A stretch of DNA of 64,000 nt from Mesorhizobium jarvisii (GTDB lineage Bacteria; Pseudomonadota; Alphaproteobacteria; Rhizobiales; Rhizobiaceae): assembly GCF_003601985.1 (NCBI RefSeq), contig NZ_QZXA01000009.1:186001-250000 (forward strand), read 5' to 3'. Shown here piece by piece: positions 7,194-54,394 of the stretch. Every line of letters starts with the position of its first letter. Position 1 is the first letter of the stretch. The position numbers and the translations under genes were made by a program. The notes beneath the pieces were generated by a model. The model worked only from the letters and a program-made list of their open reading frames with translations. It did no database searches and was not told the origin of the DNA.

Positions 7194-7286
7194 CTGCAAT
7201 CGTGAACAAAACCGATGCCGCACCGCCCATCGAGAGGCAGGCGGCATCGCCTTTGTTTCATGCTGCCGCACGCAGGCGGCAGGCGC

Positions 7287-8624: not shown

Positions 8625-8795
8625 ATGGCTGGTCTGCTTGTACGGGCGCGTGACCATTTGCTCGAGCCCGCCGATGGAGCGAATTTGGATTTCTTGCGCA
8701 AACACAGGGGTGGCGAGACAAGGCTATTTGTCGCCAGGTCACCGACAACTCTTCAAAAAGCCGTATCGATATGGCAGGACGCGGTGACCTCGTAG
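8625..8795 (+). CDS. Possible small protein (56 aa), unrecognised
   Basis: An ATG at 8625 follows AAGGAG by three bases, which is a good though closely spaced ribosome site. It opens a 56-codon frame (MAGLLVRARDHLLEPADGANL at the start) that ends 18 bases before trmJ. Third-position GC is lower than in neighbouring genes, and I recognise no family. It may be a small gene, a remnant, or chance. The opposite-strand ORFs in the same stretch look worse. Confidence 0.3.
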   Translation: MAGLLVRARDHLLEPADGANLDFLRKHRGGETRLFVARSPTTLQKAVSIWQDAVTS

Positions 8796-8813
8796 CGCAA
8801 TCATCTGGAACAC

Positions 8814-9725: not shown

Positions 9726-10506
9726 CCAGCCGATCCTGATGTTCGATTCCGGCGTCGGCGGGCTGACTGTGCTGCGCGAGGCGCGCGTGCTGATGCCGGA
9801 CCGGCGCTTCGTCTATGTCGCGGACGATGCGGCCTTTCCCTTCGGCGCCTGGGAAGAACCGGCACTGCGCACCCACATACTCGAACTCTTCGCCAAATTG
9901 CTCGACCGGTTTGCGCCTGCGATTTCCGTCATTGCCTGCAACACCGCCTCGACGCTGGTGATCGATGCGCTGCGCGAGAGATTTCCCGGCCATCCCTTCG
10001 TCGGCACCGTGCCGGCGGTCAAGCCGGCGGCGGAGCGCACCCGCTCCGGTCTGGTCTCCGTGCTGGCAACGCCGGGTACGGTGAAGCGGCAATACACGCG
10101 CGACCTGATCAGCAAATGGGCGCAGAAATGCCATGTCCGCCTGGTTGGCAGCGACAGGCTGGCGGGCCTTGCCGAAGTCTATATGCGCGAGGGCTTTGTC
10201 GACGAGGAAGCCGTGCGTGCCGAGATCGCGCCCTGTTTCATGGAACATGAGGGGCTCAGGACCGACATTGTCGTGCTGGCCTGTACGCACTATCCGTTCC
10301 TGGTCAACCGCATGCGCAAGACCGCGCCATGGCCGGTCGACTGGATCGATCCGGCCGAAGCGATCGCAAGGCGTGCCCTTTCGCTCTTGCCGCCGGTCGA
10401 CGGGGCGCTGCCGCAAGGCGAGCCTGACATCGCCGTCTTCACGTCAGGCAAGGCGGATTTCGCAGTCGGCCGGCTGATGCAAGGCTTTGGACTGTCCGTG
10501 AGCTAA
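9718..10506 (+). CDS. murI: Glutamate racemase
   Basis: MurI makes D-glutamate for peptidoglycan in the cytoplasm. The protein has 262 residues. The two catalytic cysteines are in ACNTAS (Cys74) and ACTHYPF (Cys189), and the N-terminal [11 protein letters not shown] motif is complete. The ATG at 9718 gives the standard start; a longer frame into trmJ is an overlap shadow. A palindromic repeat begins at the last base of the stop codon and may act as the transcript end. Confidence 0.96.
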
Positions 10507-10553
10507 TGCATGTCGCCCAAAAGTGACCTCGGTTTTGGGAAAACGACATGCAT
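10506..10553. repeat. Palindromic hairpin repeat downstream of murI
   Basis: The perfect 10-bp outer arms ATGCATGTCG/CGACATGCAT (10506-10515, 10544-10553) enclose 7-bp inner arms CCCAAAA/TTTTGGG (10516-10522, 10533-10539). A 10-base loop closes it and an AAAA bulge sits on the 3' side. Repeats of this shape are frequent between genes in Mesorhizobium and Rhizobium. It sits between convergent murI and the RNB nuclease gene and may serve as a bidirectional transcript end. Confidence 0.8.
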
Positions 10554-10587
10554 AAAATCAAGACCAAAGCGGCGGAACGCCAGCTGC

Positions 10588-11970: not shown

Positions 11971-12132
11971 TCAGCCGTCCTACACCAGGGTTTCGGACAC
12001 GGGAAGGCTGCCGACGAATTCGCCAAAGCTGGCTGCCTGACCGGCGGCGATCGGACGAGAAACGGGGCCATCGGCACTGGAACCGCCGCCGAAGAGCGGC
12101 GTTTCCCTGCCTGATAGCAAAGGAGAACCGCC

Positions 12133-12321
12133 ATGCCAGCCACCTCGAAAGCCCAGCAGAAAGCCGCCGGCGCCGCACTCTCCGCCAAGCGCGGCGAGAC
12201 GAAAAAGAGCGAGCTCAAAGGCGCTTCCAAAGGAATGTACGAATCCATGAGCGAAAAGCAGCTTGAGGAATTCGCCGAGACCAAGCGCAAGGGGCTGCCT
12301 GAAAAGAAGTCGAAAGACTGA
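12133..12321 (+). CDS. DUF3008 family small protein
   Basis: This is a 62-residue, Lys-rich, probably cytoplasmic protein. The sequence (start MPATSKAQQKAAGAALSAKR, then KGASKGMYESMSEKQLEEFA and a basic tail) matches the short DUF3008 family, whose members occur widely in proteobacteria and have no known function. The ribosome site AAAGGAGAA lies just before the ATG. A strong terminator follows 29 bases after the stop, so this is a single-gene transcript. Confidence 0.85.
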   Translation: MPATSKAQQKAAGAALSAKRGETKKSELKGASKGMYESMSEKQLEEFAETKRKGLPEKKSKD

Positions 12322-12350
12322 GTGTCGTTCGTGAAACGCCGACCCAAGCA

Positions 12351-12386
12351 AACAAGGCCCGCAGCGGAACCGCGGGCCTTGTTTCT
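12351..12386. terminator. Bidirectional Rho-independent terminator
   Basis: A 12-bp perfect stem AACAAGGCCCGC/GCGGGCCTTGTT (12351-12362, 12372-12383) with a nine-base loop is flanked by A-rich sequence on the left and TTT on the right. It ends the DUF3008 gene and can also serve the convergent 65-residue gene. Confidence 0.8.
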
Positions 12387-12416
12387 AGTGCAAAGTCCCT
12401 AGGCGGATGTTTTGCC

Positions 12417-12614
12417 TTACCAGCGATGGCAGCGCCGTATCCGCTCGACGATCACCCTGCGGTGGCCATGCCGCCACACCACCCTTTTCTTCACGATGAT
12501 GCGGCAGACCTGTTTATGGCCGTGCCAATGGCGCGCCATGGCCGGTTCCGGCGCAACCGCCATCGATCCGGCCAACACCGCGGCACCGGCCAAGGTAAGG
12601 AAGAACTTCTTCAT
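12417..12614 (-). CDS. Small secreted His/Arg-rich protein
   Basis: The 65-residue precursor has a clear signal peptide (MKKFFLTLAGAAVLAGSMAV, cleavage likely after AMA near residue 27). The mature part of about 38 residues is highly basic and rich in His, Trp and Arg (RHWHGHKQVCRIIVKK, then WRHGHRRVIVERIRRCHRW). Two cysteines could form a disulfide. The His content suggests metal or polyanion binding, but this is only inferred. The ribosome site GAGGAG lies about 10 bases upstream of the ATG. I recognise no family beyond similar short exported proteins of rhizobia. Confidence 0.75.
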   Translation of the reverse strand: MKKFFLTLAGAAVLAGSMAVAPEPAMARHWHGHKQVCRIIVKKRVVWRHGHRRVIVERIRRCHRW

Positions 12615-12739
12615 GCTGATTGGACTCCTCTAGCTCCAGATCCCTTCCTGGTGCCGTTGGCGCAAACCTCCCGCCACATCCGGCATCGCTCAACGCCGGG
12701 AACGCTATAGGGTTGCGTTGCGCCGCGCCACTCACAAGC

Positions 12740-12768
12740 TTGACACCGGTTAAATCTCGGTTTAACCA
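12740..12768 (+). promoter_or_regulatory. rpsD promoter with overlapping palindrome
   Basis: TTGACA (12740-12745) is followed after 17 bases by TAACCA (12763-12768), a good sigma-70 pair. The palindrome GGTTAAA-N6-TTTAACC (12748-12767) fills the spacer and touches the -10 element, which is the layout of an operator. It lies 218 bases upstream of rpsD on the same strand. Confidence 0.5.
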
Positions 12769-12937
12769 GCCGCCAACGCCGGGCAGCGATGTCCGGTGTT
12801 TGTTTTGTATGCGCAAGACCGGTTGCCTTGGTTCTGGTTTTGTTTGAACTGACGTGTCCCGTGGGTTTTCCGCCGCGTTGCGTGGGAAAGCCCTGTCAGG
12901 TCTCGAAAACGGAGGCCAGAGGAGGGCGCGTTTCCTT

Positions 12938-12962
12938 CACCCGGACCATGAGGTGCCGGGTG
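12938..12962 (+). promoter_or_regulatory. Hairpin in the rpsD leader
   Basis: A ten-pair stem (12938-12947 with 12952-12962, one bulged G at 12955) closes a four-base loop ATGA. It is followed by TGTTGTTTT and then the rpsD ribosome site. It may be an S4-responsive translational control element or an attenuator. The loop ATG also opens a short frame ending at the rpsD start. The rest of the 12615-12985 spacer shows only the promoter. Confidence 0.5.
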
Positions 12963-12985
12963 TGTTGTTTTGAAAAGGGAATGCG

Positions 12986-13603
12986 ATGAGCAAGCGCGAA
13001 TCCGCGAAATACAAGATCGACCGTCGTCTCGGCGAAAATATCTGGGGCCGCCCGAAGTCCCCGGTCAACAAGCGTGAATACGGCCCCGGCCAGCACGGCC
13101 AGCGCCGCAAGGGCAAGCTTTCCGACTTCGGCCTGCAGCTGCGCGCCAAGCAGAAGCTGAAGGGTCACTATGGCGACGTTTCGGAAAAGCAGTTCCGCAA
13201 GGTCTATGAAGAGGCCGACCGCCGCAAGGGCGACACCTCGGAGAACCTGATCGGCCTCCTCGAATCGCGTCTCGACGCGGTCGTCTACCGCGCCAAGTTC
13301 GTGCCGACCATTTTCGCGGCCCGTCAGTTCGTCAACCACGGCCACGTCAACGTCAACGGCAAGCGCGTCAACATCGGCTCGTACCGCTGCAAGCCGGGCG
13401 ACGTCGTCGAAGTGCGCGAAAAGTCGAAGCAGTTGGTCATCGTCCTGGAATCGGTCGGCCTCGCCGAGCGCGACGTGCCGGACTACATCGAAGCCGACCA
13501 CAACAAGATGGTCGCGACCTTCTCGCGCATCCCTGGCCTGGCGGACGTTCCGTTCGCGGTCCAGATGGAGCCGAACCTGGTCGTCGAATTCTATTCGCGC
13601 TAA
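12986..13603 (+). CDS. rpsD: 30S ribosomal protein S4
   Basis: S4 is a primary 16S rRNA binding protein that nucleates 30S assembly. Its 205 residues are the usual length. The N-terminal region reads [20 protein letters not shown], followed by the conserved [11 protein letters not shown] segment, and the S4 RNA-binding domain lies around 95-155 ([27 protein letters not shown]). The ATG overlaps the TGA of a short upstream frame (ATGA). The leader has a strong promoter, a palindrome and a hairpin. In other bacteria S4 represses its own operon; here rpsD stands alone, followed by a terminator. Confidence 0.99.
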
Positions 13604-13626
13604 GCGAACGCTTTTTAGCGATACCG

Positions 13627-13654
13627 AAAAGGCCGCCCTCGAGGCGGCCTTTTT
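13627..13654 (+). terminator. Rho-independent terminator of rpsD
   Basis: An 11-bp perfect stem AAAAGGCCGCC/GGCGGCCTTTT (13627-13637, 13643-13653) with a five-base loop runs into five T. It lies 24 bases after the rpsD stop. Confidence 0.9.
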
Positions 13655-13737
13655 GTTTGGCGCATCCGCTTTGCCGTTTCGATTTTCCGGCCAATGCGCT
13701 AATCCGGGCGGACATCACATTCCGGGGCCGCCGCGCC

Positions 13738-14604
13738 ATGAACATGCTGCCAGACATCGAGACGCTTGAGCCGACCGCCGAAGGCGGCTTCCACCCGCTG
13801 TTCGCCGATGTGCCATCCTCGGTCGAGTTCAACAAATTGCGCAAGCGGCTGCTGCGGCTGACCCGCCAGGCGATCGAGGATTTCGCGATGGTGGAGCCGG
13901 GACAGCGCTGGCTGGTCGCGCTGTCGGGCGGCAAGGATTCCTACGGCCTGCTTGCCTTGCTGCTCGACCTCAAATGGCGCGGGCTGCTGCCGGTCGAATT
14001 GCTGGCCTGCAATCTCGATCAGGGCCAGCCGAATTTCCCCAAGCACATCCTGCCCGACTATCTCAACGCCAACGGAATTGCCCACCGCATCGAGTACCAG
14101 GACACCTATTCGGTGGTCACCGACAAGCTGCCGCAAGGCAGCACCTATTGCTCGCTCTGTTCACGGCTGCGGCGCGGCCATCTCTACCGCATCGCGCGCG
14201 AGGAGGGGTGCTCGGCACTGGTGCTCGGCCATCATCGCGAGGACATTCTCGAAACCTTTTTCATGAACTTGTTCCATGGCGGCCGTCTCGCCGCCATGCC
14301 GCCAAAGCTGCTCAACGACGAAGGCGACGTCATGGTGCTGCGGCCGCTGAGCTATTGCGCCGAGATCGACCTCGAAAAATTCGCCGCGGCGATGCGGTTC
14401 CCGATCATTCCTTGCGACCTCTGCGGCAGCCAGGAAGGTCTCCAGCGCAACACCATGAAGGCGATGCTGGAGGATATCGAAAAGCGCATGCCCGGCCGCA
14501 AGGACACCATGATCCGCGCCCTGTCCAACACCAGGCCGTCGCATCTCCTCGACAGGAAACTGTTCGATTTCGCCGCCCTGAACCAGACCCTCATCACAGG
14601 ATAA
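13738..14604 (+). CDS. ttcA: tRNA 2-thiocytidine biosynthesis protein TtcA
   Basis: TtcA is an iron-sulfur enzyme that thiolates cytidine 32 of certain tRNAs using ATP. The protein has 288 residues. The PP-loop SGGKDS is at 63-68, and the two conserved cysteine pairs CSLC and CDLC, which hold the [4Fe-4S] cluster, are present, as is [15 protein letters not shown]. The ATG at 13738 was chosen because family similarity begins there; an in-frame upstream start would add an unrelated segment over the rpsD terminator region. With trmJ, it is the second position-32 tRNA modification gene in this window. Confidence 0.95.
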
Positions 14605-14614
14605 GACGCATCCG

Positions 14615-15442
14615 ATGACATTTGACGACAACGCGATCGACTGGCTGGCCAACCTGCTGGCCGAGGCCGCCGACACCGAAATCATGCCCCGCTTCCGCCG
14701 GCTGGGCGATGGCGACGTCAGGCAGAAGACCTCAGCCGCCGATCTGGTGACGGAAGCGGACGTCAACGCCGAGCGGCTGATCACCGCCAGGCTGCGCCAG
14801 CGTTATCCCTCGGCCATGGTTGTCGGCGAGGAAGCCTGTCCCGACGACCCGACGCTGCTCGATGGCCTGGGCGACGCCGATCTGGCCTTCGTCATCGACC
14901 CGGTCGACGGCACCTTCAATTTCGCCTCCGGCGTGCCGCTGTTCGGCGTCATGCTCGGCGTCGTGGTCAAGGGCGAGACGGTCGCCGGCATCATCCATGA
15001 TCCGGTCGGCAAGGACTGGCTGATCGGCGCCAAGGGTGCGGGCAGTCATATCCGCCATGCGCATGGTACGCTGGAGACAGTGCGGGTTGCGGCGAGCGCG
15101 CCGATCTCGCAGATGACCGGCGCGGTTTCCTGGCAGTACATGGCCGAGCCCGACCGCACGCGGCTGGCCTGCAACCAGACCAAGACGCTGTCGCAGTTCA
15201 ACTACCGCTGCGCCGCCCACGAATACCGCTTGCTGGCGAGCGGCCATGGCCATTTCGTCGTCTACAACAAGCTGATGCCATGGGATCATCTGGCCGGCGT
15301 GCTGATCCATGCGGAGGCCGGCGGCCATGCCGCGCGCTTCGACGGCACAGCCTATCTGCCGTCGCATGTCGGCGGCGGCCTGCTGGTCGCCCCCGATCCT
15401 GAAAGCTGGCAGGAGTTGCGCCGAGAGCTGTGGGCTGGGTAG
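14615..15442 (+). CDS. Inositol monophosphatase family protein
   Basis: This 275-residue Mg-dependent phosphatase has the family motifs GEEACPDD (first Glu ligand, around 70), DPVDGTFNFASG (metal-binding DPxDGT, around 93) and the C-terminal MPWDHLAGVLIHAEAGG (WD motif). Members hydrolyse inositol-1-phosphate, histidinol phosphate or 3'-phosphoadenosine phosphates; the substrate cannot be read from the sequence. It starts 10 bases after ttcA and is probably co-transcribed with it. Confidence 0.9.
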   Translation: MTFDDNAIDWLANLLAEAADTEIMPRFRRLGDGDVRQKTSAADLVTEADVNAERLITARLRQRYPSAMVVGEEACPDDPTLLDGLGDADLAFVIDPVDGTFNFASGVPLFGVMLGVVVKGETVAGIIHDPVGKDWLIGAKGAGSHIRHAHGTLETVRVAASAPISQMTGAVSWQYMAEPDRTRLACNQTKTLSQFNYRCAAHEYRLLASGHGHFVVYNKLMPWDHLAGVLIHAEAGGHAARFDGTAYLPSHVGGGLLVAPDPESWQELRRELWAG

Positions 15443-15511
15443 GATCACTTCCAGAGGCCGGCGCTTGACCGTGCGCGGCCGAAGAGTTGGTGCTTTCGCG
15501 CAGGCCCTCGG

Positions 15512-15919
15512 ATGAAACCTCGGTTCGCAATTTTCGCGGCGGCTCTCGCTGCCGTCTTGTTTGCAAGCGCCAACACGGCAATCGCGCAAGAGCGCCCCTG
15601 CCACAGCACCGATCCGGTCGACACCCTCAAGGAGATGTCGGAGGCTATCTATGCCTGCTGGATGCCGCCAGCGGGAACCGCGGGCATGTCCCTGACGCTG
15701 CAGTTCTCGCTGCGCCGCAACGGCACGCTGATCGGCAAGCCTCGCGCCACCTATTCGGATCTGGGGACCGATCCGCAACTCAGCCGGGCCTTCGTGGCAT
15801 CCATACTGAAGGCGCTCGACGATGCGCTGCCATTGCCCTTTTCGGACAGTATGGGCGGTGCAATCGCCGGGCGCATGCTTGCGCCTCGATTCACGGCGGC
15901 ACTTGTAGGTGCATCCTGA
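15512..15919 (+). CDS. Hypothetical exported protein (TonB C-terminal-like)
   Basis: The 135-residue precursor has a signal peptide (about 1-26, cleavage after AIA). The mature part has two cysteines (PCHSTD and YACWMPP) and a segment MSLTLQFSLRRNGTLIGKPR that resembles the strand pattern of TonB/TolA C-terminal domains, where the first strand reads VxVxFxLxRDGxLxG. It is likely periplasmic. Function is unknown. Similar short TonB-C-like exported proteins are common in rhizobia; the fold match is by eye. Confidence 0.7.
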   Translation: MKPRFAIFAAALAAVLFASANTAIAQERPCHSTDPVDTLKEMSEAIYACWMPPAGTAGMSLTLQFSLRRNGTLIGKPRATYSDLGTDPQLSRAFVASILKALDDALPLPFSDSMGGAIAGRMLAPRFTAALVGAS

Positions 15920-15929
15920 CGCACGTGGT

Positions 15930-17198
15930 CTAATGCAGGTCGGTGACATGCCCTGAAATGGGTGGATTGTGCGGCTGGAACATCTTGCCGCGCTCAGCGA
16001 TGAGGATCATCAGCAGCGCCGCGACCGAGACGCTGCAGAATCCGGCGGCAAGCGGCGTCACCGTGCCGTTGAAAGCCTGGCCGATCAGCGTGCCGAGAAT
16101 GCCGCCGAGAAACGTCTGCATGAAACCCAGTATGGACGATGCCGTGCCGGCCAGTTGGCCGAGCGGCTCCATCGCCAATGCGTTGAAATTGGCGCCAAGC
16201 GCACCGAAGGGAAGCATGGCGCTGGCAAAGAAGGTGATGAACAGCCAGAGCGGCATCTTGATTTCCAGCGAAACCACCAGCCAGGCCAGGCTGATGACCA
16301 GAAACAAAAGCAGCGCGCTCTGCGACAGCCGGCGCATGCCGATGCGGCCGACAAGCCGCGAGTTCAGGAAATTGGAGAAGGCGAGCACGCCGGCGACCCC
16401 GGCGAAGATGACCGGGAACATCTCGCCGACGTTGAAGATGCCGACATAGATCTGCTGCGCCGAGGCGATGAAGCCGAACATGGCGGCGAAGATGAAAGTG
16501 CTGGCAAAGGCGTAGCAGAGCGCGATGCGGTTGGTGAGCACGATGCGGAATCCGCCGAGGACGGAGGAAACCGTCAGTTGCCGGCGATATTCGGGCCGCA
16601 GCGTTTCAGGCAGGCGCAGCAGCGACCATGCCGACACGATCAGCGCGCCGACGGCCATGGTAACGAAGATATAGTGCCAAGTCGCGAACAGCATGATGAA
16701 CTGGCCGATGCCCGGCGCAATGACCGGTATGGCCATGAACACCATGAAGATCAGCGACATCACCTCCGCCATGCGCCGGCCTTCGAACGTATCGCGCACG
16801 ATCGAGACCGCGATGACGCGCGTGGCCGCCGCGCCGATGCCTTGCACGGCGCGGCACATCAAGAGCGTTTCAAAGCTTGGCGCGATGGCGGCGGCGGCGG
16901 CTGCCGCCACATAGATGATCAGCCCGGCGACGAGCGGCGAGCGGCGGCCGAACCGGTCGGAGATCGGCCCGAAGAACAGCTGGCCGCCACCAAAACCCAG
17001 AATGTAGGCGGTGACCACATATTGCCGGTGGTTTTCATTCTCGACGCCGAGCGAGGCGCCGATCTGCTGCAGCGCCGGCAGCATGATGTCGATGGCCAGC
17101 GAATTCAGCGCCATCAGCGCCGCGCACAGCGCAATGAACTCCCAGCGCGGAATAGGCAGTTTGCTTGCCGATTGCGGCGCTGTTGATTGCTGGTCCAC
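15930..17198 (-). CDS. MFS transporter, Bcr/CflA drug-resistance type
   Basis: This 422-residue inner-membrane protein has twelve predicted helices. The DHA1 signatures are visible: MLPALQQIGASLGV after helix 1, the motif A loop FFGPISDRFGRRSPLVAGL, RAVQGIGAAATRVIAVSIVRD (helix 4, motif B/C type) and GLPxxG-like small-residue runs. The Bcr/CflA group exports antibiotics such as bicyclomycin or sulfonamides with proton antiport; the substrate here is unknown. It is the last gene of the minus-strand set after grxD, with a terminator between them, so it probably has its own promoter. Confidence 0.9.
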   Translation of the reverse strand: MDQQSTAPQSASKLPIPRWEFIALCAALMALNSLAIDIMLPALQQIGASLGVENENHRQYVVTAYILGFGGGQLFFGPISDRFGRRSPLVAGLIIYVAAAAAAAIAPSFETLLMCRAVQGIGAAATRVIAVSIVRDTFEGRRMAEVMSLIFMVFMAIPVIAPGIGQFIMLFATWHYIFVTMAVGALIVSAWSLLRLPETLRPEYRRQLTVSSVLGGFRIVLTNRIALCYAFASTFIFAAMFGFIASAQQIYVGIFNVGEMFPVIFAGVAGVLAFSNFLNSRLVGRIGMRRLSQSALLLFLVISLAWLVVSLEIKMPLWLFITFFASAMLPFGALGANFNALAMEPLGQLAGTASSILGFMQTFLGGILGTLIGQAFNGTVTPLAAGFCSVSVAALLMILIAERGKMFQPHNPPISGHVTDLH

Positions 17199-17214
17199 GG
17201 CAAGTCCGATCTCT

Positions 17215-17243
17215 CAAACGAAAACGCGCCGGCGGGCCGGCGC
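17215..17243 (-). terminator. Terminator of grxD
   Basis: On the minus strand the 8-bp arms GCGCCGGC/GCCGGCGC (17243-17236, 17233-17226) are followed by GTTTTCGTTT. The loop is nominally two bases, so the top pairs must open. It lies about 90 bases beyond the grxD stop. Confidence 0.6.
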
Positions 17244-17335
17244 ATTGGCTCGTCTTGGTCCCGATACCGGGACATAAAGATTGCCGAGGTGGGGCTGCCC
17301 CGGTGTTCAATGCAGTCGTTACGACATGCCCAAAA

Positions 17336-17671
17336 TCAGGCGGCGCCTTTGACGCCGACGCCCTTTTCGACCAGGAAGGTCTGCAACTCGCCGGCCTGGA
17401 ACATCTCGCGGACAATATCGCAGCCGCCGACGAATTCGCCCTTGACGTAGAGCTGCGGGATCGTCGGCCAGTTGGAATAGTCCTTGATGCCCTGGCGCAG
17501 TTCAGCCGAATCCAGGACATTCACGCCTTTGTAGTCGGCGCCGATATAGTCGAGGATCTGGACTACCTGTCCGGAAAAACCGCACTGCGGAAAACCGGGC
17601 GTGCCCTTCATGAAAAGCACGACGTCGTTGCCCTTCACTTCATTGTCGATGTAGTCGTTGATACCGCTCAT
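17336..17671 (-). CDS. grxD: Monothiol glutaredoxin, Grx4 family
   Basis: The 111-residue cytoplasmic glutaredoxin carries the CGFS active site (Cys30-Ser33), a [19 protein letters not shown] segment for glutathione binding, and nothing else. CGFS glutaredoxins bind a [2Fe-2S] cluster with glutathione and, paired with BolA, act in iron-sulfur transfer and iron sensing. The bolA-type gene lies just upstream on the same strand, which fits that role. The start at 17671 has AAAGGA before it; a longer in-frame start upstream has no support. Confidence 0.96.
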
Positions 17672-17824
17672 GGAATATCCTTTCACGCCTGTGTGAGTCA
17701 GGCTCGAAGCATGTCTTTCAAATAAACCCATAGGTTGCCCGAAACAAGACATTAGCCGCGCCATGGCCGAAATGGCGCAAAGGATGGGCGGGTTTGGGCC
17801 AAGCGGGTGTTGGCCGGAACGGCC

Positions 17825-18058
17825 TCAGTCGGGAACGCTGGTCTGCAGCGCAAGTGCGTGCAGCACGCCGCCCATATTGCCCTTCAGCGCATCATAGACC
17901 ATCTGGTGCTGCTGGACGCGGCTTTTTCCCCGAAAGCTCTCGGCGACGACTTCAGCCGCATAGTGGTCGCCGTCGCCGGCGAGGTCGCGGATCGTCACCT
18001 TGGCGTCCGGAATGCCGTCCTTGATCAGTTTTTCGATGTCGTGGGCATCCATTGCCAT
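17825..18058 (-). CDS. BolA family protein
   Basis: This 77-residue single-domain protein of the BolA/YrbA class has a small alpha-beta fold. The conserved C-terminal part reads FRGKSRVQQHQMVYDALKGN with the His used as cluster ligand in BolA-glutaredoxin pairs. It lies 153 bases upstream of grxD on the same strand, so the two products likely form a heterocomplex. A second Met at codon 3 is an equally possible start. Confidence 0.93.
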   Translation of the reverse strand: MAMDAHDIEKLIKDGIPDAKVTIRDLAGDGDHYAAEVVAESFRGKSRVQQHQMVYDALKGNMGGVLHALALQTSVPD

Positions 18059-18180
18059 TGCAGAATTCCTATTTCGGGCGGGCGGCAATGTGGCCGCCCT
18101 TGCGATGAGAGTCGGGGTAAACCTAAAGCCTTTCCGGCCGCGATTGAAGCCGTTCCATCCGCCGCCGGCGCGATTGTCGC

Positions 18181-18701
18181 CTAGGACGCATTCTCCTCCG
18201 GATCGACCGCATCGGACGCTGGGTCGTCTTCGCGCATCGAGAAGGTGCGGCCAAGACTGAAAACCAGGATATAGAGGGGGATGTTGACCGCAAGATTGGC
18301 GATCGGCAGGTAGCCGGTGATCTGCCAGACGGGCGAGAAGAACGGTTGGCCATAGCCGTCGCAGACAAGCGACGAGCCATATTCCCACAAGGCGCCCAGA
18401 ACGGCCGCGACGGCGAAAAGCTTGATGCAGGTGACGATCCGGTTTGTTCGTGCCGGGTCCGGCAGAAGCCGGTTCCAGAACACCAGACAGACGATCGGAA
18501 CCGCATAGATGAGGTTCTGCAGCACCAGCATAGGCAGCGTGCCGTTGGCCGCGTCAAGGAACTCGGCGCGCGTTTCCAGCCGCGGGCAAACCTCGCTCGA
18601 GGTTGTCGACAACAGGAAAAAGACGAACGGCCCGAGGAACCAGAAGAAGAACAGCGACGGCCAGAAAACGACTGCAAGCAGCGCCCGGGCAGCCAGTGTG
18701 C

Positions 18702-18705
<4 letters not shown>
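18181..18705 (-). CDS. Hypothetical integral membrane protein
   Basis: The 174-residue protein has about four hydrophobic helices (about 8-32, 58-76, 90-108, 132-152) and an acidic, charged C-terminal tail. I do not recognise a family. The start codon is TTG and overlaps the purL stop (TTGA), so translation is probably coupled to purL. No other good start lies nearby; a shadow frame on the same strand is less hydrophobic. Confidence 0.6.
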
Positions 18706-20933
<2,228 letters not shown>

Positions 20934-48288: not shown

Positions 48289-49317
48289 TCACCGCATCCT
48301 GCCACCGAAGCCGGTGAGGAAGGCGGTGAGATTGTCGCCGAGTTCGTCGCAGAGATAGCCGCCTTCCTGGACGATGACGCTCGGCAGGCCGAGTTTGCCA
48401 ATCGCCTCGCCAATGCGGGAGAAGCCGGGCGTCGTCACCGAGAGCCCGCCGAACGGATCGCCCTGGAAGGCGTCGAGGCCGAGCGCGACCACCAGCGCGT
48501 CCGGCGAAAAGGCGCGAATGCGCTGGAACGCAACGCCAAGCGCCTCCAGAAACGCCGCGTCGGCGGATTTGCGCGGCAAGGGCAGGTTGAAATTATAGCC
48601 GAGGCCGGGTCCTTCGCCGCGCTCGTCGGCATGACCCCAGAAGAACGGATAGAAGCGCACCGGATCGGCATGCAGCGAAACGGTAAGCACGTCAGGGCGC
48701 GCATAGAAGATGCCTTGCGTGCCGTTGCCGTGGTGCAGATCGACATCGAGGATCGCCACGCGTGCCGCCTGCTTGCGCAGCACCTGCGCCGCAACGGCCG
48801 AATTGTTGATGAAGCAGAAGCCGCCGGCGACATCGGCAAAGGCATGGTGGCCGGGCGGACGACACAGCGCATAGGCGGCCGGCGCGCCAGCCATCACCGT
48901 TTCCGCTGCCTCGACCGCACTCCAGGCGCTCCACAGCGCGCTTTGCCAGGTTTCGCCTGAGATCGGGCAAGCGGTGTCGGCCATATGGTAGCCGGCCTGG
49001 CTGACCGCCGAGGCAGGGTAGGAACCATTGCGCGCGATCGGATGGATGTTGGGGATCACTTCCGCCGAGGCGCCTTCGATGCGCTGCCAGCGCTCGAAAA
49101 TATGTTCGAGGAAGTCGAGATATTCGGGCGTATGCACCGCCGAGACCGGGCCGAGACCGTGATCGCGGGGCCGCTCGATCGTGCAGCCGGCGGATTTTGC
49201 GCCGGCTAACAATCTCTCGACGCGCTCCGGTTTTTCCGGGTTGGGCTGCGCCGCACCACTGGAAAGAAACGCCTTCGGGTCGTGGCGCTTCTGCTCTTCG
49301 GCGTAAAAGGCCTTCAT
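48289..49317 (-). CDS. Histone deacetylase family protein (acetylpolyamine amidohydrolase type)
   Basis: The 342-residue zinc amidohydrolase has the His-His dyad in RPPGHHAF (around 155), the zinc ligands Asp and His in LDVDLHHGNGTQ (around 190) and the second Asp in GLDAFQGDPFGG (around 282), and the oxyanion Tyr motif EGGYLCDELG. Bacterial members remove acetyl groups from polyamines, other acylated amines or lysines. Its ATG overlaps the stop of an upstream GNAT acetyltransferase gene (ATGA), pairing acetylation with deacetylation. Confidence 0.93.
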   Translation of the reverse strand: MKAFYAEEQKRHDPKAFLSSGAAQPNPEKPERVERLLAGAKSAGCTIERPRDHGLGPVSAVHTPEYLDFLEHIFERWQRIEGASAEVIPNIHPIARNGSYPASAVSQAGYHMADTACPISGETWQSALWSAWSAVEAAETVMAGAPAAYALCRPPGHHAFADVAGGFCFINNSAVAAQVLRKQAARVAILDVDLHHGNGTQGIFYARPDVLTVSLHADPVRFYPFFWGHADERGEGPGLGYNFNLPLPRKSADAAFLEALGVAFQRIRAFSPDALVVALGLDAFQGDPFGGLSVTTPGFSRIGEAIGKLGLPSVIVQEGGYLCDELGDNLTAFLTGFGGRMR

Positions 49318-49836: not shown

Positions 49837-49994
49837 CACCCCCCTCTGTCCTGCCGGACATCTCCCCCGCAAGGGGGGAGATTGGACGGCCGCCAGGCTT
49901 TCGCCAATCACAAACGTTCGAGCAGGAGCGGCGAGACTGAAGCTGCCGATCTCCCCCCTTGCGGGGGAGATGGCCGACAGGCCAGAGGGGGGTG
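49837..49994. repeat. Inverted pair of 49-base palindromic repeats
   Basis: The left arm (49837-49885) starts CACCCCCCTCTGTCCTGCCG and contains its own hairpin ATCTCCCCC/GGGGGGAGAT. The right arm (49946-49994) is its near-perfect reverse complement (about 43 of 49 bases). Sixty bases of unique sequence lie between. This looks like a rhizobial intergenic mosaic element. It fills the spacer between the GNAT and BKACE genes; nothing else is visible there. Confidence 0.85.
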
Positions 49995-50028: not shown

Positions 50029-50958
50029 TCAAAACGCCACCCGGTCGCCGCCCTTCAGCGCCAGCATCTCACGCGCCTCGGTCGGCGTGGCGACCTCCAG
50101 CGACAGGCCGTCGAGGATGCCCCGGATGCGGCGCACCTGGTCGGCGTTGGATTTCGCCAACTGGCGGCCATCGTAGAGACTGTCTTCAAGCCCGACACGG
50201 ACATTGCCGCCCATCGCAGCCGCGATCGAGATCAGCGGGATCTGCTGGCGGCCGGCAGCCAGCACCGAGAATTGGTAGCTATCGCCGAACAATTTGTCGG
50301 CGATGCGCTTCATGTGGATGAGATTGTCCGGATCGGCGCCGATGCCGCCAAGAATGCCTAGCACGAACTGGATGAACAGCGGTCCCGACACCAGCCCTCG
50401 GTCCCGGAAATGCGCCAGCGAATAGAGATGGCCGACATCGTAGCATTCGAATTCGAAGCGCGTGCCGCAACCCTTGCCGAGCCGCTCAAGCACGCCTTCC
50501 ATGTCGGCGAAGGTGTTCTTGAAAATGGTGTCGCGCGTCGCCTCCAGCAGCTTCGGCTCCCAGTCGTGCTGCCATTCCCGTGGCTTGTCGAGCATCGGGA
50601 ACAGCGCGAAATTCATCGATCCCATATTGAGCGAGCACATTTCGGGCTCCGCTCGCAATGGGGCCGCCAATCGCTGGTCCAGGGTCATCAGGGAAGAGCC
50701 GCCGGTGGTGATGTTGATCACCGCATCGGTCGCCTGCTTGATGCGCGGCAGGAACTGCATGAAGACATCAGGATCGGCGGTCGGCCGGCCATCCCTGGGG
50801 TCGCGGGCGTGCAGATGCAGGATCGACGCGCCGGCTTCCGCTGCAGCAATGGCATCCGCCGCGATCTGGTCCGGCGTCACCGGCAGATAGGGCGACATGG
50901 ACGGCGTGTGGACCGAGCCGGTGACGGCGCAGGTGATGATGACCTTTCGCGGCGCCAT
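50029..50958 (-). CDS. Beta-keto acid cleavage enzyme (BKACE, DUF849)
   Basis: The 309-residue TIM-barrel enzyme condenses a beta-keto acid with acetyl-CoA to give acetoacetate and a new CoA ester. The first known member acts on 3-keto-5-aminohexanoate in lysine fermentation. The zinc ligands are in ASILHLHARDPRDG (His-x-His, around 45-50). Further family parts are NITTGGSS, SLNMGSMNFA, FECYDVGHLY and MGGNVRVGLEDSLY. The substrate is set by a few pocket residues and cannot be read here. It lies five bases after the aminotransferase gene in the same operon. Confidence 0.93.
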   Translation of the reverse strand: MAPRKVIITCAVTGSVHTPSMSPYLPVTPDQIAADAIAAAEAGASILHLHARDPRDGRPTADPDVFMQFLPRIKQATDAVINITTGGSSLMTLDQRLAAPLRAEPEMCSLNMGSMNFALFPMLDKPREWQHDWEPKLLEATRDTIFKNTFADMEGVLERLGKGCGTRFEFECYDVGHLYSLAHFRDRGLVSGPLFIQFVLGILGGIGADPDNLIHMKRIADKLFGDSYQFSVLAAGRQQIPLISIAAAMGGNVRVGLEDSLYDGRQLAKSNADQVRRIRGILDGLSLEVATPTEAREMLALKGGDRVAF

Positions 50959-50962
50959 TCCT

Positions 50963-52348
50963 TTACCCCCGGCCTTCGACCGGCAGGTCGAGCTCTGATG
51001 CCAGAACCTCCAGCGAGTCGCCGATGATGGAGATGATCTCGCCGACCTGCTCGCTGGTGACGATCATCGGTGGCGCGACCATGAAATTGTCGCCGTCGAC
51101 GCCGCCCTTGACCCGGCGGCCATAGATGATCAGCCCGCGCTCATAGGCGAGGTCGAGCAGACGCTGCGTGGCTTTCCTGCTCTGGTCGATCGGCCGCAGC
51201 GTTTCTGGATCGGCAACCATCTCGGCGCCGGTCAGTAGGCCCTTGCCGCGCACGTCGGCGATGAAGGGAAAGCGCTTCGCCAGTCCCTTCAGACCGTCCA
51301 TCAGCACGCCTCCCATGGCGGCGGCATTGGCGATCAGGTCAAGCCGATCCATCTCGCCCAACACGGCAAGGCCGGCGGCGCAGGCCAGCGGATTGCCGGC
51401 ATAGGTGTGGCCATGCTGGAAGCCGCCGGAAGCCAGCAGCGGCTGCACCAGCCGCATCGGTGCCGCCAGTGCGCCGAGCGGCGCATAGCCCGAGCCCAGC
51501 CCCTTCGACAGCGCGACGATGTCGGGCTTGCAGTTCCAGTGGTCGCCGCCGAGGAATTTCCCGGTGCGGCCGGCGCCGCACATCACTTCGTCATGGATGA
51601 GCAGAATGCCGTAGCGGTCGCAGATTTCGCGAATGCGCGCATAGTAGCTGTCCGGCGCTACCAGCGCCGCGGTCGCCGCACCGCCGATAGGTTCCATGAT
51701 GAAGGCGACGACGCTCTCCGGGCCTTCGGCGAGGATCTTCTCTTCCAGCATGTCGGCATAGCGGATGCCGCGCTGCTCCATCGAAAGGTTGTCGCGGTCG
51801 CGCCAGGCGGTAGGCGCCGGCACGGTCGGCATCACCCGCATCATCGGCGTAAAGGTCTCAGCCAGGGCGTCGTCGCCGGTGATCGAGAGCGAACCCAGCG
51901 TGCCGCCATGATAGGAGGGGAAGCGCGTGATCACCTTCCATCGGCTGGCCTGGCCGGTGGCAACGGCCCATTGCCGCGCCAATTTGATGCAGGATTCCGT
52001 CGCCTCCGAGCCGCCCGAGACGAAGAAGATGCGGTCCATGCCCTCCGGCAGCTTGGCCGCAAGCTCACGCGCAAGCTCTTCCGCCGGCTCGTTCTCGAAA
52101 TGCAGCCGGTAGGCGAAGGTGGCGCGGTCCATCTGCCGCTTCATGGCGTCCAGCACATTGCGGTTGGAATGGCCGATATTGGCGACCATCGGCCCGCTCG
52201 ATCCGTCGATGAAGCGGCGGCCGTCCTGCGTCCACATATAGATGCCCTCGGCGCGATCGATCAGCGGCCGGCGCAGGCTGGACAGATAGAACAGATGCGA
52301 TTGGCGCCGGGCCTCGGTATCTCGAGCAGCGGTCTGGGTCTTCGACAT
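50963..52348 (-). CDS. Class III aminotransferase
   Basis: The 461-residue PLP enzyme of the omega-amino acid transaminase group shows SGGSEATESCIKLARQWA (around 110), the PLP-stacking and Asp residues in LIHDEVMCGAGRTGKF, and the Schiff-base Lys in ALSKGLGSGYAPLGAL (around 280), plus GFQHGHTYAGNPLACAAG. The typical substrates are terminal amines or beta-amino acids, yielding an aldehyde or beta-keto acid. The product could go directly to the BKACE encoded next. ATG 52348 has GGAAAG upstream and lies one base before the stop triplet of the preceding gene. Confidence 0.93.
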   Translation of the reverse strand: MSKTQTAARDTEARRQSHLFYLSSLRRPLIDRAEGIYMWTQDGRRFIDGSSGPMVANIGHSNRNVLDAMKRQMDRATFAYRLHFENEPAEELARELAAKLPEGMDRIFFVSGGSEATESCIKLARQWAVATGQASRWKVITRFPSYHGGTLGSLSITGDDALAETFTPMMRVMPTVPAPTAWRDRDNLSMEQRGIRYADMLEEKILAEGPESVVAFIMEPIGGAATAALVAPDSYYARIREICDRYGILLIHDEVMCGAGRTGKFLGGDHWNCKPDIVALSKGLGSGYAPLGALAAPMRLVQPLLASGGFQHGHTYAGNPLACAAGLAVLGEMDRLDLIANAAAMGGVLMDGLKGLAKRFPFIADVRGKGLLTGAEMVADPETLRPIDQSRKATQRLLDLAYERGLIIYGRRVKGGVDGDNFMVAPPMIVTSEQVGEIISIIGDSLEVLASELDLPVEGRG

Positions 52349-52349
52349 G

Positions 52350-53990
52350 TCAGGACTTTCCAAGGTAGCGATCAAGGACATTTTGGGTGACGCGTTTGAC
52401 CATCGGGTCTTGTCTTAGCAGGCCGGCGACCCATTCGCAGCTTCCGGCGTGGAACACCTCGCCCTTGCCGCGCGGAAAATTGACGATCATGCCGTTGCCG
52501 CGTTTGACTTTTTCGAGATTGGCGTCGCTCGCCTCGCCGAACAAAGTCTCGGCGGTGAAGCGGCCATCCTCGTCGGTGAGGAACTGATCCTCGATCGGAA
52601 TGTCGGCGCTTTCCTCGACCTGGCTGGCCATGCCGACGGCAAGAACCTGCAAGCCGTCAGGCGCGCCGCTGTCTGATGTGGGGTAGGGCAGGCCGCCGCG
52701 GATTTCGAAGTCGAGCCCGTCGACCTCATAGCCATAGACATGGCTGTCGGCGCCGAGCAGGTCGCCATAGTAGATGCCGGTGCCGGCGAACGCCCAGTGT
52801 TCCGGCCGGTAGACCGGAAAACCACGCACGCCACGCGGCGCGCAGCCGCCCCAGCCGGCATAGACGCCGCGCGTCGCGTTGAGCCCGAAGGTCGCCGAAC
52901 CCGGCCGGCCGATTTCCGGCGCTTCCCAGGAATTGGTGGCGCGGGTGACGTCGCCGCCGCGGTAGGCCGGGTCCTCGGTCCGGGCACGATATTTGTAGCA
53001 GACCTGCCGCCCGCCTTCGTCCTCGAGCCGCGTCTGCCACATGAAATTGCCGGCGAAACGAGCCGCATGCCCGCCGCGCTCAACATAATTGTCGACCGCA
53101 TCGCGCATTTCCCATGTCCAGTACTCGTCATGGCCGACGAAGACGGCGCAGTCGTAGCCGTCGAGAATGTCGGGCGAAAAATGCAGATCGTGCTGGCTGG
53201 CGAGATCGACATGATAGCCGGCCCGCTCGGCGAAGCGGAAGAAGTGGCTGTCGTAGCTCGCCCAGCCTGACGAGGCGTATTTCTTCGAATGGCCGGTGGC
53301 CAGCGCCCATTCCATATGCGGATACCGCGGCACGGTCTTCGGCGGCACGGCGACCTCCAGCGGCACGCGCGGCGCATCTTTGGGCAGCGCGACGAAGCCG
53401 CGGCACCAGGGGCGCTGCGTCGACACGATGGGCGAATACTGGTTGCGGTCCGGCCCGGTGATGCCCTGATAATGGTTGGAGCCGCCCCAGGTGTTGTAGG
53501 CAAGCCAGGTGCCCGTCGCCGCCACCTGCAGCACACGGCCTGGCTTCCTGCCGGGTTGGGGAGAGACGATGAAGAGATGGTGGCTGTGAATTGGCTTGCC
53601 GTCCCGACCATCGGCAATCAGCGTTATCCGATAGGCACCGGACGGCCAGTCGCTCCCGACACGGAATTCGAAGGACGCTTCCCAGCCGCAGCCCTCGGCC
53701 GAGCACTGGTCCGGGCTTTCCTGCCAGCGCGATGCAATGCCCGATTTCTCGAACAGTTTTGTCTCGCTGCCGCCGTCGCGGGTAATCGTCACGCTGAACG
53801 ACGGCGCCGTCGAACTGACATGCAGCGCCACCGTCTCGCCGGCGCGATAGGAAAAGCGGTCCGAGTAGCACCAGATTTCGCCGCGCGCGCCATCCATGCC
53901 GGGCCATTCATAGTAATGACCGCGCACCGCGTGGCGACGCTGCTCGGGCGTCAGCCCGAAATCGGGGAATTCGGTCGGCAGATGGGTCAT
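52350..53990 (-). CDS. N,N-dimethylformamidase large-subunit-like protein
   Basis: The 546-residue protein has an N-terminal beta-sandwich (about 35-165) and a large catalytic-type domain similar to the C-terminal part of N,N-dimethylformamidase, with TGTWLAYNTWGGSNHYQG (around 190), VFVGHDEYWTWEMRDAVDNY (around 315) and FAGTGIYYGDLLGADSHVYG. In the known enzyme a mononuclear iron is held by two Tyr and a Glu; the Tyr in HDEYW is a candidate ligand. No small-subunit gene is visible. It is the first gene of the operon with the aminotransferase and BKACE. Amide hydrolysis is a reasonable but unproved role. Confidence 0.78.
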   Translation of the reverse strand: MTHLPTEFPDFGLTPEQRRHAVRGHYYEWPGMDGARGEIWCYSDRFSYRAGETVALHVSSTAPSFSVTITRDGGSETKLFEKSGIASRWQESPDQCSAEGCGWEASFEFRVGSDWPSGAYRITLIADGRDGKPIHSHHLFIVSPQPGRKPGRVLQVAATGTWLAYNTWGGSNHYQGITGPDRNQYSPIVSTQRPWCRGFVALPKDAPRVPLEVAVPPKTVPRYPHMEWALATGHSKKYASSGWASYDSHFFRFAERAGYHVDLASQHDLHFSPDILDGYDCAVFVGHDEYWTWEMRDAVDNYVERGGHAARFAGNFMWQTRLEDEGGRQVCYKYRARTEDPAYRGGDVTRATNSWEAPEIGRPGSATFGLNATRGVYAGWGGCAPRGVRGFPVYRPEHWAFAGTGIYYGDLLGADSHVYGYEVDGLDFEIRGGLPYPTSDSGAPDGLQVLAVGMASQVEESADIPIEDQFLTDEDGRFTAETLFGEASDANLEKVKRGNGMIVNFPRGKGEVFHAGSCEWVAGLLRQDPMVKRVTQNVLDRYLGKS

Positions 53991-54145
53991 GAACACCGGA
54001 AAGGATCGAAGGTCGCCATTTCGGCCATCTGCCGGCCAAGCGTCAAATGGAAACGATCGGGCCAGCAATTGCTTAGCCGCTCTTGGCCGCACAAGGCAAA
54101 GCGACTATTTCAGGCGAGGCGGTATGTTCCGCCCGGGGAGCCAGC

Positions 54146-54394
54146 ATGCTCAGAGTGCAAAAGGTCAAGGTCGACGACATCTACGTGCCGACCGCGCGCA
54201 AGAAGACATTGCACCCCGAGACCGTCCGCCATCTGGCCGAGGACATATTGGAGAACGGCATGAAGACGCCGATCCAGGTCCGCCACGATGGCAAGCGCCA
54301 TATCCTTGTCGAAGGCCTGCACCGGCTGGAAGCGGCCAAGTGGCTCGGCGAGACCGAGATCGACGCCTACCTGGTGCAAGCCAAGCGCCATTGA
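54146..54394 (+). CDS. ParB-like nuclease (ParB/Srx fold) domain protein
   Basis: The 82-residue stand-alone domain of the ParB N-terminal/sulfiredoxin superfamily shows VKVDDIYVPTARKKTLHPET, LAEDILENGMKTPIQVRHDG (the substrate box) and LVEGLHRLEAAKWLGE. It lacks the helix-turn-helix and dimer domain of partition ParB, so it is not the chromosome-segregation protein. Relatives bind or hydrolyse CTP or act as small nucleases. GGGGAG lies upstream of the ATG; longer frames are not supported. Confidence 0.85.
   Translation: MLRVQKVKVDDIYVPTARKKTLHPETVRHLAEDILENGMKTPIQVRHDGKRHILVEGLHRLEAAKWLGETEIDAYLVQAKRH

What the first reader, a model, noticed from the sequence alone, without database searches (positions are those of the whole stretch)
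50029..53990. Possible new catabolic route: amidase-like protein, omega-aminotransferase and BKACE in one operon
The order dimethylformamidase-like protein, class III aminotransferase, beta-keto acid cleavage enzyme, with gaps of 1 and 4 bases, suggests successive steps: hydrolysis of an amide to release an amine (perhaps a beta- or delta-amino acid), transamination to a beta-keto acid, then cleavage with acetyl-CoA to acetoacetate and an acyl-CoA. I know of no described pathway with this trio. No transporter or regulator is adjacent.
Basis: inference. Interest (0 to 1): 0.65.

Follow-up and report, generated by a model that had tools for sequence, protein, structure and literature searches.

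The report
Operon for eating a beta-diamino acid
Five neighbouring genes in a soil Mesorhizobium are the remnant of an eleven-gene cluster that probably breaks down an unusual amino acid such as beta-lysine, by freeing it from an amide, capping one amine, turning the other into a ketone and cutting the product into central metabolites.

Summary
A GNAT and an acetylpolyamine-amidohydrolase-like (HDAC-fold) gene downstream travel with it. In 17 of 80 close loci and 13 of 46 loci from other genera of the family, an amino-acid ABC transporter with a divergent LysR gene lies directly upstream, with a thioesterase gene beyond (17 of 17 and 7 of 13); the window strain lacks that block. The DMFase-like protein keeps five active-site residues of Paracoccus DMFase, and its nearest solved fold is an N-acetyl-beta-phenylalanine acylase. 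The GNAT's nearest named solved relatives acetylate diamines and lysine/ornithine analogues. In two distant loci CoA-transferase plus thiolase stand in for BKACE, which fits an aminotransferase that makes a beta-keto acid. Best reading: amide hydrolysis, omega-N-acetylation, transamination, BKACE cleavage, thioester hydrolysis and deacetylation of a beta,omega-diamino acid. Beta-lysine is the leading candidate because the order matches a route I recall from Pseudomonas biochemistry of 1979-81, whose genes I believe are unassigned. Substrate and reactions are inferred, not shown.

The parts
52350..53990 (-). DMFase-family amidohydrolase (546 aa), proposed entry step: hydrolysis of an N-acyl or lactam form of the substrate
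   Evidence: PF20254 4.7e-68; Y165/Y174/H287/E289/N315 align with DMFase Y399/Y440/H519/E521/N547; AlphaFold pLDDT 92.8; VIA Z 31.8 to 8HUY N-acetyl-(R)-beta-phenylalanine acylase and 31.4 to 6LVD DMFase
50963..52348 (-). class III (omega) aminotransferase (461 aa), proposed beta-amine transaminase
   Evidence: PF00202 6.9e-92; PLP lysine K282 in LSKGLG by motif; follows the DMFase-like gene in 79/80 loci
50029..50958 (-). BKACE (309 aa), proposed beta-keto acid + acetyl-CoA to acetoacetate + acyl-CoA
   Evidence: PF05853 2.5e-106; NF053538 523 bits over cut-off 430; nearest characterised solved relative BKACE15 of Paracoccus denitrificans, 8RIO 2.9e-116, behind two uncharacterised chains 3E49 and 3E02 (PMC11961710)
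49314..49817 (-). GNAT acetyltransferase (GTG start at 49817 by homology), proposed omega-N-acetyltransferase of the diamino acid
   Evidence: PF00583 2.2e-15; nearest named PDB relatives thialysine acetyltransferase 12JC 1.6e-17, diamine acetyltransferase 2BEI 2.7e-13, NATA1 ornithine N5-acetyltransferase 8XJ5 4.7e-07; found in 77/80 close loci
48289..49317 (-). HDAC-fold acetylpolyamine-amidohydrolase-like protein (342 aa), proposed deacetylase of the acetamido acid; start overlaps the GNAT stop by 4 nt
   Evidence: PF00850 2.6e-74; nearest PDB 3MEN acetylpolyamine aminohydrolase 1.6e-105; found in 76/80 close loci
49837..49994 (.). 49-nt inverted repeat (92% complementary, 60 nt apart) between BKACE and GNAT, MITE-like by look, splits the operon in this strain
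   Evidence: BKACE-GNAT spacing runs from overlap to about 590 nt among close loci
53991..54082 (.). Place where thioesterase, LysR and the four transporter genes lie in complete relatives (about 4.6 kb in L007); absent here

Best explanation
A catabolic operon for a beta,omega-diamino acid, most likely beta-lysine (3,6-diaminohexanoate). In complete versions a polar-amino-acid ABC transporter brings in the compound or an amide of it, next to a divergent LysR regulator. The DMFase-family enzyme hydrolyses the amide. The GNAT acetylates the omega-amine, so that the later ketone cannot cyclise with it. The class III aminotransferase removes the beta-amine to give a beta-keto acid (6-acetamido-3-oxohexanoate). 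BKACE exchanges it with acetyl-CoA into acetoacetate and 4-acetamidobutyryl-CoA. The hotdog thioesterase releases 4-acetamidobutyrate, and the acetylpolyamine-amidohydrolase-like enzyme deacetylates it to 4-aminobutyrate. Shown here: gene content, conservation, families, aligned active-site residues, alternative gene sets. Inferred: every reaction, the order and the substrate. The window strain keeps five of the eleven genes and lacks transporter, regulator and thioesterase.
For: Conserved gene set in several genera and families. The DMFase-like protein keeps the active-site set in 24 of 24 aligned members and its nearest solved fold is an N-acyl-beta-amino-acid acylase by title. GNAT is nearest to thialysine/diamine/ornithine acetyltransferases among named chains. 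HDAC-like protein is nearest to acetylpolyamine amidohydrolases. The nearest characterised BKACE takes C5-C6 beta-keto acids. BKACE and 3-oxoacid CoA-transferase occur together in 0 of 186 scored loci (4 have the CoA-transferase), and in L282 and L284 CoA-transferase, ArgE/DapE deacylase and thiolase stand where BKACE and the HDAC-like gene stand elsewhere, as expected of two ways to cleave a beta-keto acid. The binding protein is of family 3, with glutamine-, histidine- and lysine/arginine/ornithine-binding solved relatives. Acetyltransferase, aminotransferase, BKACE, thioesterase and deacetylase genes are together in 17 of 80 close loci and 7 of 46 others.
Against: In four distant loci with transporter and LysR (L125-L128, three of one genus) no GNAT or HDAC-like gene was found within 7.5 kb, and L283, L284, L285 and L290 had no detected GNAT, so acetylation may not be obligatory. 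BKACE is absent from 30 of 78 informative close loci and 15 of 37 others, where I saw no convincing replacement beside it. Two genomes keep AT-BKACE-GNAT-HDAC without the DMFase-like gene beside it. The thioesterase gene lies beyond LysR, not in the same transcription unit, and is found in only 7 of 13 transporter-bearing loci of other genera. No lysine 2,3-aminomutase link was seen: 0 of 30 loci with aminomutase homologues carry operon genes, but those loci reach only about 1.5 kb to each side. Related loci carry a FAD-dependent oxidoreductase, and one also RidA, which the scheme does not need. NCBIfam names the BKACE subgroup after another substrate. There is no assay.
Confidence: 0.46

Rival explanations
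1. One reading: an N-acyl beta-amino acid without a second amine (aliphatic or aromatic) is hydrolysed, transaminated and cleaved; GNAT and HDAC-like genes serve something else and ride along.
For: DMFase-family relative acts on N-acetyl-(R)-beta-phenylalanine by PDB title; L125-L128 have trio, transporter and regulator without detected GNAT/HDAC.
Against: GNAT found in 35 and HDAC-like in 33 of 37 loci of other genera that have the aminotransferase; GNAT and HDAC-like overlap by 4 nt in 40 close loci; both are of diamine or diamino-acid families.
Confidence: 0.23
2. Beta-alanine route: amide-bound beta-alanine is freed, transaminated to malonate semialdehyde, and BKACE makes formyl-CoA and acetoacetate, the reaction used in the synthetic CORE cycle.
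For: BKACE15, the nearest characterised homologue, converts malonate semialdehyde, and a transaminase plus BKACE pair works in E. coli (PMC11961710, passages).
Against: CoA-transferase plus thiolase in place of BKACE makes little sense for malonate semialdehyde; acetyltransferase and deacetylase are unexplained; ordinary beta-alanine catabolism needs none of this (general knowledge).
Confidence: 0.08
3. Polyamine-type route: the aminotransferase acts on a terminal amine of an acetylated polyamine or polyamine-derived acid, and BKACE works on a later beta-keto acid or is recruited for another step.
For: GNAT and HDAC-like genes are of polyamine families; AT-BKACE loci such as L287 have an SBP_bac_8/TOBE_2 transporter of the kind used for polyamines, a DAO oxidoreductase and RidA.
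Against: In the window's own lineage the transporter is of the amino-acid type, and BKACE, or CoA-transferase in L282, L284 and L292, sits beside the aminotransferase.
Confidence: 0.14

Closest known systems
L-beta-lysine catabolism of Pseudomonas B4 (Barker laboratory, 1979-81; EC 2.6.1.65 and EC 3.5.1.51), recalled, no paper seen
   Same: Acetylation of beta-lysine, transamination to 3-keto-6-acetamidohexanoate, cleavage to 4-acetamidobutyryl-CoA, thioester hydrolysis and deacetylation to 4-aminobutyrate: the same set of enzyme types as this cluster
   Different: No gene was assigned as far as I recall; the DMFase-like amidase is an extra step; thioesterase and deacetylase would be two proteins here, one in Pseudomonas
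Clostridial lysine fermentation (Kce, 3-keto-5-aminohexanoate cleavage enzyme)
   Same: BKACE-family cleavage of a beta-keto acid with acetyl-CoA
   Different: Anaerobic route through 3,5-diaminohexanoate without acetylation (recalled); the window BKACE falls far below the Kce equivalog cut-off (224 against 382 bits)
Paracoccus N,N-dimethylformamidase (DmfA1A2) and N-acetyl-(R)-beta-phenylalanine acylase (8HUY)
   Same: Fold over 413-421 aligned residues, and the Tyr2-Glu iron site with His and Asn for DMFase
   Different: Window protein has 546 aa against 762 (DmfA2 of pAMI2) and 772 (8HUY), so an inserted domain is missing; no DmfA1 found in the genome (a weak test)
BKACE15 of Paracoccus denitrificans (8RIO)
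   Same: Similar over the whole length
   Different: Its paper says the genetic context suggests degradation of aromatic compounds (PMC11961710, passages)

Membership tests
DMFase-like amidohydrolases (PF20254) | DMFA2_C domain over the curated cut-off | tested here: met
   230.7 bits against 27
DMFase-like amidohydrolases (PF20254) | 2-Tyr-1-Glu iron ligands plus active-site His and Asn | tested here: met
   Y165, Y174, E289, H287, N315 align with Y399, Y440, E521, H519, N547 of Paracoccus aminophilus DmfA2, the same in 24 of 24 family members; by sequence only, and the second Tyr lies across a 32-residue gap, so it is the least sure
N,N-dimethylformamidase proper (DmfA1A2) | Small subunit DmfA1 | tested here: inconclusive
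   The gene upstream is an opposite-strand ParB_N-like ORF; a search of the genome with pAMI2 DmfA1 found nothing, but without a positive control
N,N-dimethylformamidase proper (DmfA1A2) | Large subunit of about 760 aa with inserted pentraxin domain | tested here: not met
   546 aa against 762
BKACE (PF05853, NF053538) | Family and equivalog scores over cut-off | tested here: met
   355.5 against 24.8 bits; 523 against 430 bits
BKACE (PF05853, NF053538) | Zinc-site and substrate-site motifs (HLH, NxG, R...ED; recalled from Kce) | tested here: met
   HLHARD at 48, NMGSMNF at 111, NVRVGLEDS at 252, aligned with 8RIO
BKACE (PF05853, NF053538) | Activity on 3,5-dioxohexanoate, the NCBIfam name | not testable with these tools
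   needs enzyme assay
Clostridial Kce | Kce equivalog NF052387 over cut-off | tested here: not met
   224.2 against 382 bits
Class III aminotransferase | PF00202 and PLP lysine motif | tested here: met
   308.6 against 30.5 bits; K282
Acetylpolyamine amidohydrolase | HDAC family with nearest solved relatives in that group and the His-His, Asp-His, Asp, Tyr motifs (motifs recalled) | tested here: met
   3MEN 1.6e-105, 9GKZ, 6PHR, 3Q9B the best hits, motifs aligned (positions)
Diamine/thialysine (SSAT-like) acetyltransferase | Nearest named solved relatives in that group | tested here: met
   12JC 1.6e-17, 2BEI 2.7e-13, 3BJ7 2.4e-11; second best 2FE7 is a 'probable N-acetyltransferase'; which amine is acetylated is not testable here
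Pseudomonas-type beta-lysine degradation pathway (recalled) | Acetyltransferase, transaminase, keto acid cleavage, thioesterase and deacetylase encoded together | tested here: met
   all five types together in 17 of 80 close loci and 7 of 46 loci of other genera; not in the window itself, which has no thioesterase there
Pseudomonas-type beta-lysine degradation pathway (recalled) | Activity on beta-lysine intermediates | not testable with these tools
   needs assay or growth test

The most novel reading that the evidence does not exclude
This is the first gene set for aerobic beta-lysine catabolism, giving genes to two enzymes that I recall as sequence-less (EC 2.6.1.65 N6-acetyl-beta-lysine transaminase and EC 3.5.1.51 4-acetamidobutyryl-CoA deacetylase/thioesterase), with a DMFase-family iron enzyme that frees beta-lysine from beta-lysyl amides in soil, possibly including those of streptothricin-type antibiotics; and it exists in two interchangeable versions, one cleaving the beta-keto acid with BKACE and one with CoA-transferase plus thiolase.
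Probability: 0.3. Interest if true: 0.75.

Novelty: new variant of a known kind. Interest (0 to 1): 0.57.

Why it matters
It turns a three-gene curiosity into an eleven-gene cluster with a testable chemistry that is common in Mesorhizobium and its family. If the beta-lysine reading holds, it assigns genes to a pathway recalled from enzymology of about 1980, gives a natural role to a BKACE subgroup that is now named after a screening substrate, and extends the tyrosine-ligated iron amidohydrolases from solvents to beta-amino acid conjugates in soil.

Tried and rejected
Lysine fermentation by Kce: rejected, BKACE is far below that equivalog cut-off. True dimethylformamidase: inserted domain missing by length, no DmfA1 found. 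Transporter moved elsewhere in the genome: the best relative of the binding protein there is 35% identical, so not supported. Link to lysine 2,3-aminomutase: the own genome has one KamA-family protein, nearest TIGR03822 but below its cut-off; 0 of 376 class genomes passed TIGR03820's cut-off, and 0 of 30 loci (of 37 matches; about 1.5 kb flanks) carry operon genes. Thiolase beside L213, L214, L216, L217 as a BKACE substitute (first thought): dropped, by eye it sits in a separate acyl-CoA synthetase/enoyl-CoA hydratase cluster. Sinorhizobium medicae L160 as a clean BKACE-free version: dropped, its aminotransferase is HemL-like and no orthologue was found there.

Literature: searches; none of the listings shows a paper on this gene set, on 3-keto-6-acetamidohexanoate, or on EC 2.6.1.65/3.5.1.51. 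The library holds open-licence papers only, so the old journal papers are unlikely to be in it and absence says little. Seen: PMC7686228 (parts 1 and 2 of 3), passages of PMC11961710, PMC4619459 and PMC2821294; of the others only search listings. The beta-lysine pathway and its EC numbers are recalled.

Rows dropped or limited: one search kept the best 80 of 415 related stretches; 4 of the 80 titles are not Mesorhizobium. One search gave 53 of 327 genomes at E<=1e-150, 47 of them of other genera; I fetched 46 regions from 45 of these. One search gave 32 of 398 genomes; 10 are of the own genus or family, 13 were fetched, and 9 whose best match was 43% or less were not (those seen were closer to another aminotransferase group). 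The module counts use a 7.5-kb reach and identity thresholds, so absence means 'not detected there'; 5 of 20 distant DMFase-like loci fell below the thresholds altogether. L022 and L070 end at contig ends after the DMFase-like gene and the aminotransferase and are left out of '30 of 78'. One search counts the aminotransferase in 79 of 80 at half coverage, in 80 of 80 at 30% coverage. '97 of 144' and the tally of titles are my own counts of printed rows.

Full report
What is there. On the minus strand, a DMFase-family gene (53990-52350), a class III aminotransferase (52348-50963) and a BKACE (50958-50029) follow each other with gaps of 1 and 4 nt. The own genome has 6.6 Mb in 48 contigs; the nearest named loci are Mesorhizobium. 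It has six BKACE-family matches, two of them short or weak, and one DMFA2_C protein.

The unit is larger than the trio. Downstream on the same strand lie a GNAT (start GTG at 49817 by homology) and an HDAC-fold protein whose start overlaps the GNAT stop by 4 nt. In the 80 best loci (76 titled Mesorhizobium) the aminotransferase follows the DMFase-like gene in 79; with the looser count the aminotransferase is found in 80, GNAT in 77, HDAC-like in 76, BKACE in 48. BKACE and GNAT are separated in the window by a 49-nt inverted repeat, and their spacing runs from overlap to about 590 nt among relatives. At genome level 144 of 146 genus genomes have a DMFase-like match (E<=0.001, paralogues included), and by my count of the rows, 97 of 144 have a BKACE at 86% identity or more (one partial, two with an internal stop).

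A complete cluster exists. In 17 of the 80 loci, among them M. huakuii L007 with 95% identity in the DMFase-like protein, a family-3 solute-binding protein, two permeases and an ATPase end a few bases before the DMFase-like gene; a LysR gene is divergent from them, and beyond it lies a 4HBT-type thioesterase gene, convergent with LysR. That makes eleven genes: nine in one direction, plus LysR and thioesterase. The thioesterase is there in all 17; an eighteenth locus, L035, has thioesterase and LysR but no transporter, as if caught half way through the loss. The window has none of the block, and the best relative of the binding protein elsewhere in its genome is 35% identical, so the block was most simply lost, not moved. 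The same order is found in other genera of the family (f1, Rhizobiaceae by recall): of 46 loci from 45 genomes, 37 have the aminotransferase, and of these 22 have BKACE, 35 GNAT, 33 HDAC-like, 13 transporter, 16 LysR; 7 of the 13 with transporter have the thioesterase. It is also on plasmids of Ensifer adhaerens (L168, with the transporter) and Pararhizobium qamdonense (L165, without it), two of ten plasmid loci looked at. In four genomes of two other families (L125-L128, three of them one genus) transporter, LysR and trio are present but GNAT and HDAC-like were not detected. Two genus genomes keep AT-BKACE-GNAT-HDAC without the DMFase-like gene beside it (L199, L200), so the amidase looks like an entry step.

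Alternative gene sets. A phylum-wide search with the aminotransferase (32 of 398 genomes at E<=1e-100) gave 13 regions that I fetched. Nine have BKACE beside the aminotransferase, each with at least one of GNAT, HDAC-like or ArgE-like deacylase. Two (L282, L284) have LysR, transporter, aminotransferase, 3-oxoacid CoA-transferase A and B, ArgE/DapE deacylase and thiolase, with GNAT in L282 only, and no BKACE; L292, in another class, has aminotransferase (45%), CoA-transferase, transporter and an HDAC-like gene; L291 has none of these. Of 186 scored loci none had both BKACE and CoA-transferase, but only four have the CoA-transferase. The simplest sense is that the aminotransferase makes a beta-keto acid that can be cleaved either directly with acetyl-CoA or after activation. 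L287 has an SBP_bac_8/TOBE_2-type transporter, a DAO oxidoreductase and RidA (Pfam); L283, L285 and L290 have similar oxidoreductases by sequence start; L282 has a creatininase-family gene among its transporter genes. These are not explained.

What each protein is like. DMFase-like: a single-sequence search of the PDB finds no relative, but a profile of 24 relatives finds 8I5A/8HUY, N-acetyl-(R)-beta-phenylalanine acylase (6.5e-25), and 6LVB, DMFase (6.7e-24). Residues of the iron site described in PMC7686228 (Y399, Y440, E521 ligands; H519 and N547 in the site) align with Y165, Y174, E289, H287 and N315, the same in 24 of 24; the second tyrosine lies across a 32-residue gap, and I had no coordinates to check geometry. 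The AlphaFold model has pLDDT 92.8; VIA-align gives Z 31.8 (2.7 A, 420 residues) to 8HUY and 31.4 to 6LVD, with the next unrelated row at 14.6. That 8HUY acts on an N-acyl beta-amino acid rests on its PDB title. BKACE: its two nearest solved chains are uncharacterised (3E49, 3E02); [quoted passage not shown] The residue that I place opposite Glu14 of Kce, recalled as contacting the substrate amine, is V16 here, as expected for a neutral side chain; neither the alignment nor the contact was checked with a tool (one search failed). GNAT: nearest named solved relatives are thialysine, diamine and ornithine-N5 acetyltransferases. HDAC-like: nearest are acetylpolyamine amidohydrolases. Binding protein: glutamine-, histidine-, lysine/arginine/ornithine- and opine-binding types among its solved relatives. 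Aminotransferase: nearest solved chain 3I4J is named only as class III, so its specificity is open.

Mechanism. Put together: uptake of a polar amino-acid-like amide, hydrolysis, acetylation of the omega-amine, transamination of the beta-amine, cleavage of the beta-keto acid to acetoacetate and an omega-acetamido acyl-CoA, release by the thioesterase, deacetylation. This set of steps is that of L-beta-lysine breakdown in Pseudomonas as I recall it from the literature of 1979-81; no listing or 86 shows it. Acetylation would keep 6-amino-3-oxohexanoate from cyclising. Beta-lysine is the best candidate I can name; the evidence here fixes the class of chemistry better than the molecule. Against it stand the loci without GNAT, the frequent absence of BKACE (30 of 78 informative close loci, 15 of 37 others), the irregular thioesterase, the unexplained oxidase/RidA loci and the lack of any linked aminomutase within a short reach.

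Verdict.

Noticed in passing
window 54083-54394 (+): A ParB_N-like small ORF (below Pfam's gathering score) is found beside the operon in 79 of 80 close loci, on the opposite strand, also where the transporter block lies between them (L007).
   Followed up: partly
L160 (Sinorhizobium medicae pSU277_3) 6187-19020: A DMFase-like gene behind another amino-acid transporter, near LysR, CoA-transferase A/B, ArgE/DapE deacylase, thiolase, GNAT and a HemL-like aminotransferase: a possible third version with an unrelated aminotransferase.
   Followed up: partly
L287 11753-13223; L283, L285, L290: AT-BKACE loci with a DAO-family FAD oxidoreductase (Pfam in L287, sequence start in the others), plus RidA and an SBP_bac_8/TOBE_2-type transporter in L287, suggesting a related but different amine substrate.
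   Followed up: partly
L166 (Ensifer adhaerens OV14 pOV14c) 3658-15604 and L169 (Novosphingobium pLA3) 7530-19620: More distant DMFase-like genes lie among agmatinase/SpeB and amino-acid transporter genes, or next to an APC permease and a urea carboxylase cluster: the family seems broadly used for nitrogen compounds.
   Followed up: no
G031:C24:114689-115609 and G086:C1:3904525-3905451 (genus genomes): The orthologous BKACE is reported with one internal stop in each, in line with repeated loss of BKACE in the genus.
   Followed up: no
L035 8248-9998: Thioesterase and LysR are kept but the four transporter genes are missing: an intermediate between the complete cluster and the window's version.
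   Followed up: partly
G000:C7:50804-51763 (L279): The own genome encodes a KamA-family radical SAM protein nearest to the lysine-2,3-aminomutase-like TIGR03822 but below its cut-off; an endogenous source of beta-lysine is possible.
   Followed up: partly
L294 (Paracoccus aminophilus pAMI2) 5430-5693: PLSDB predicts an 'AAK-1 beta-lactamase' that lies inside an IS3-family transposase gene, probably a false call.
   Followed up: no
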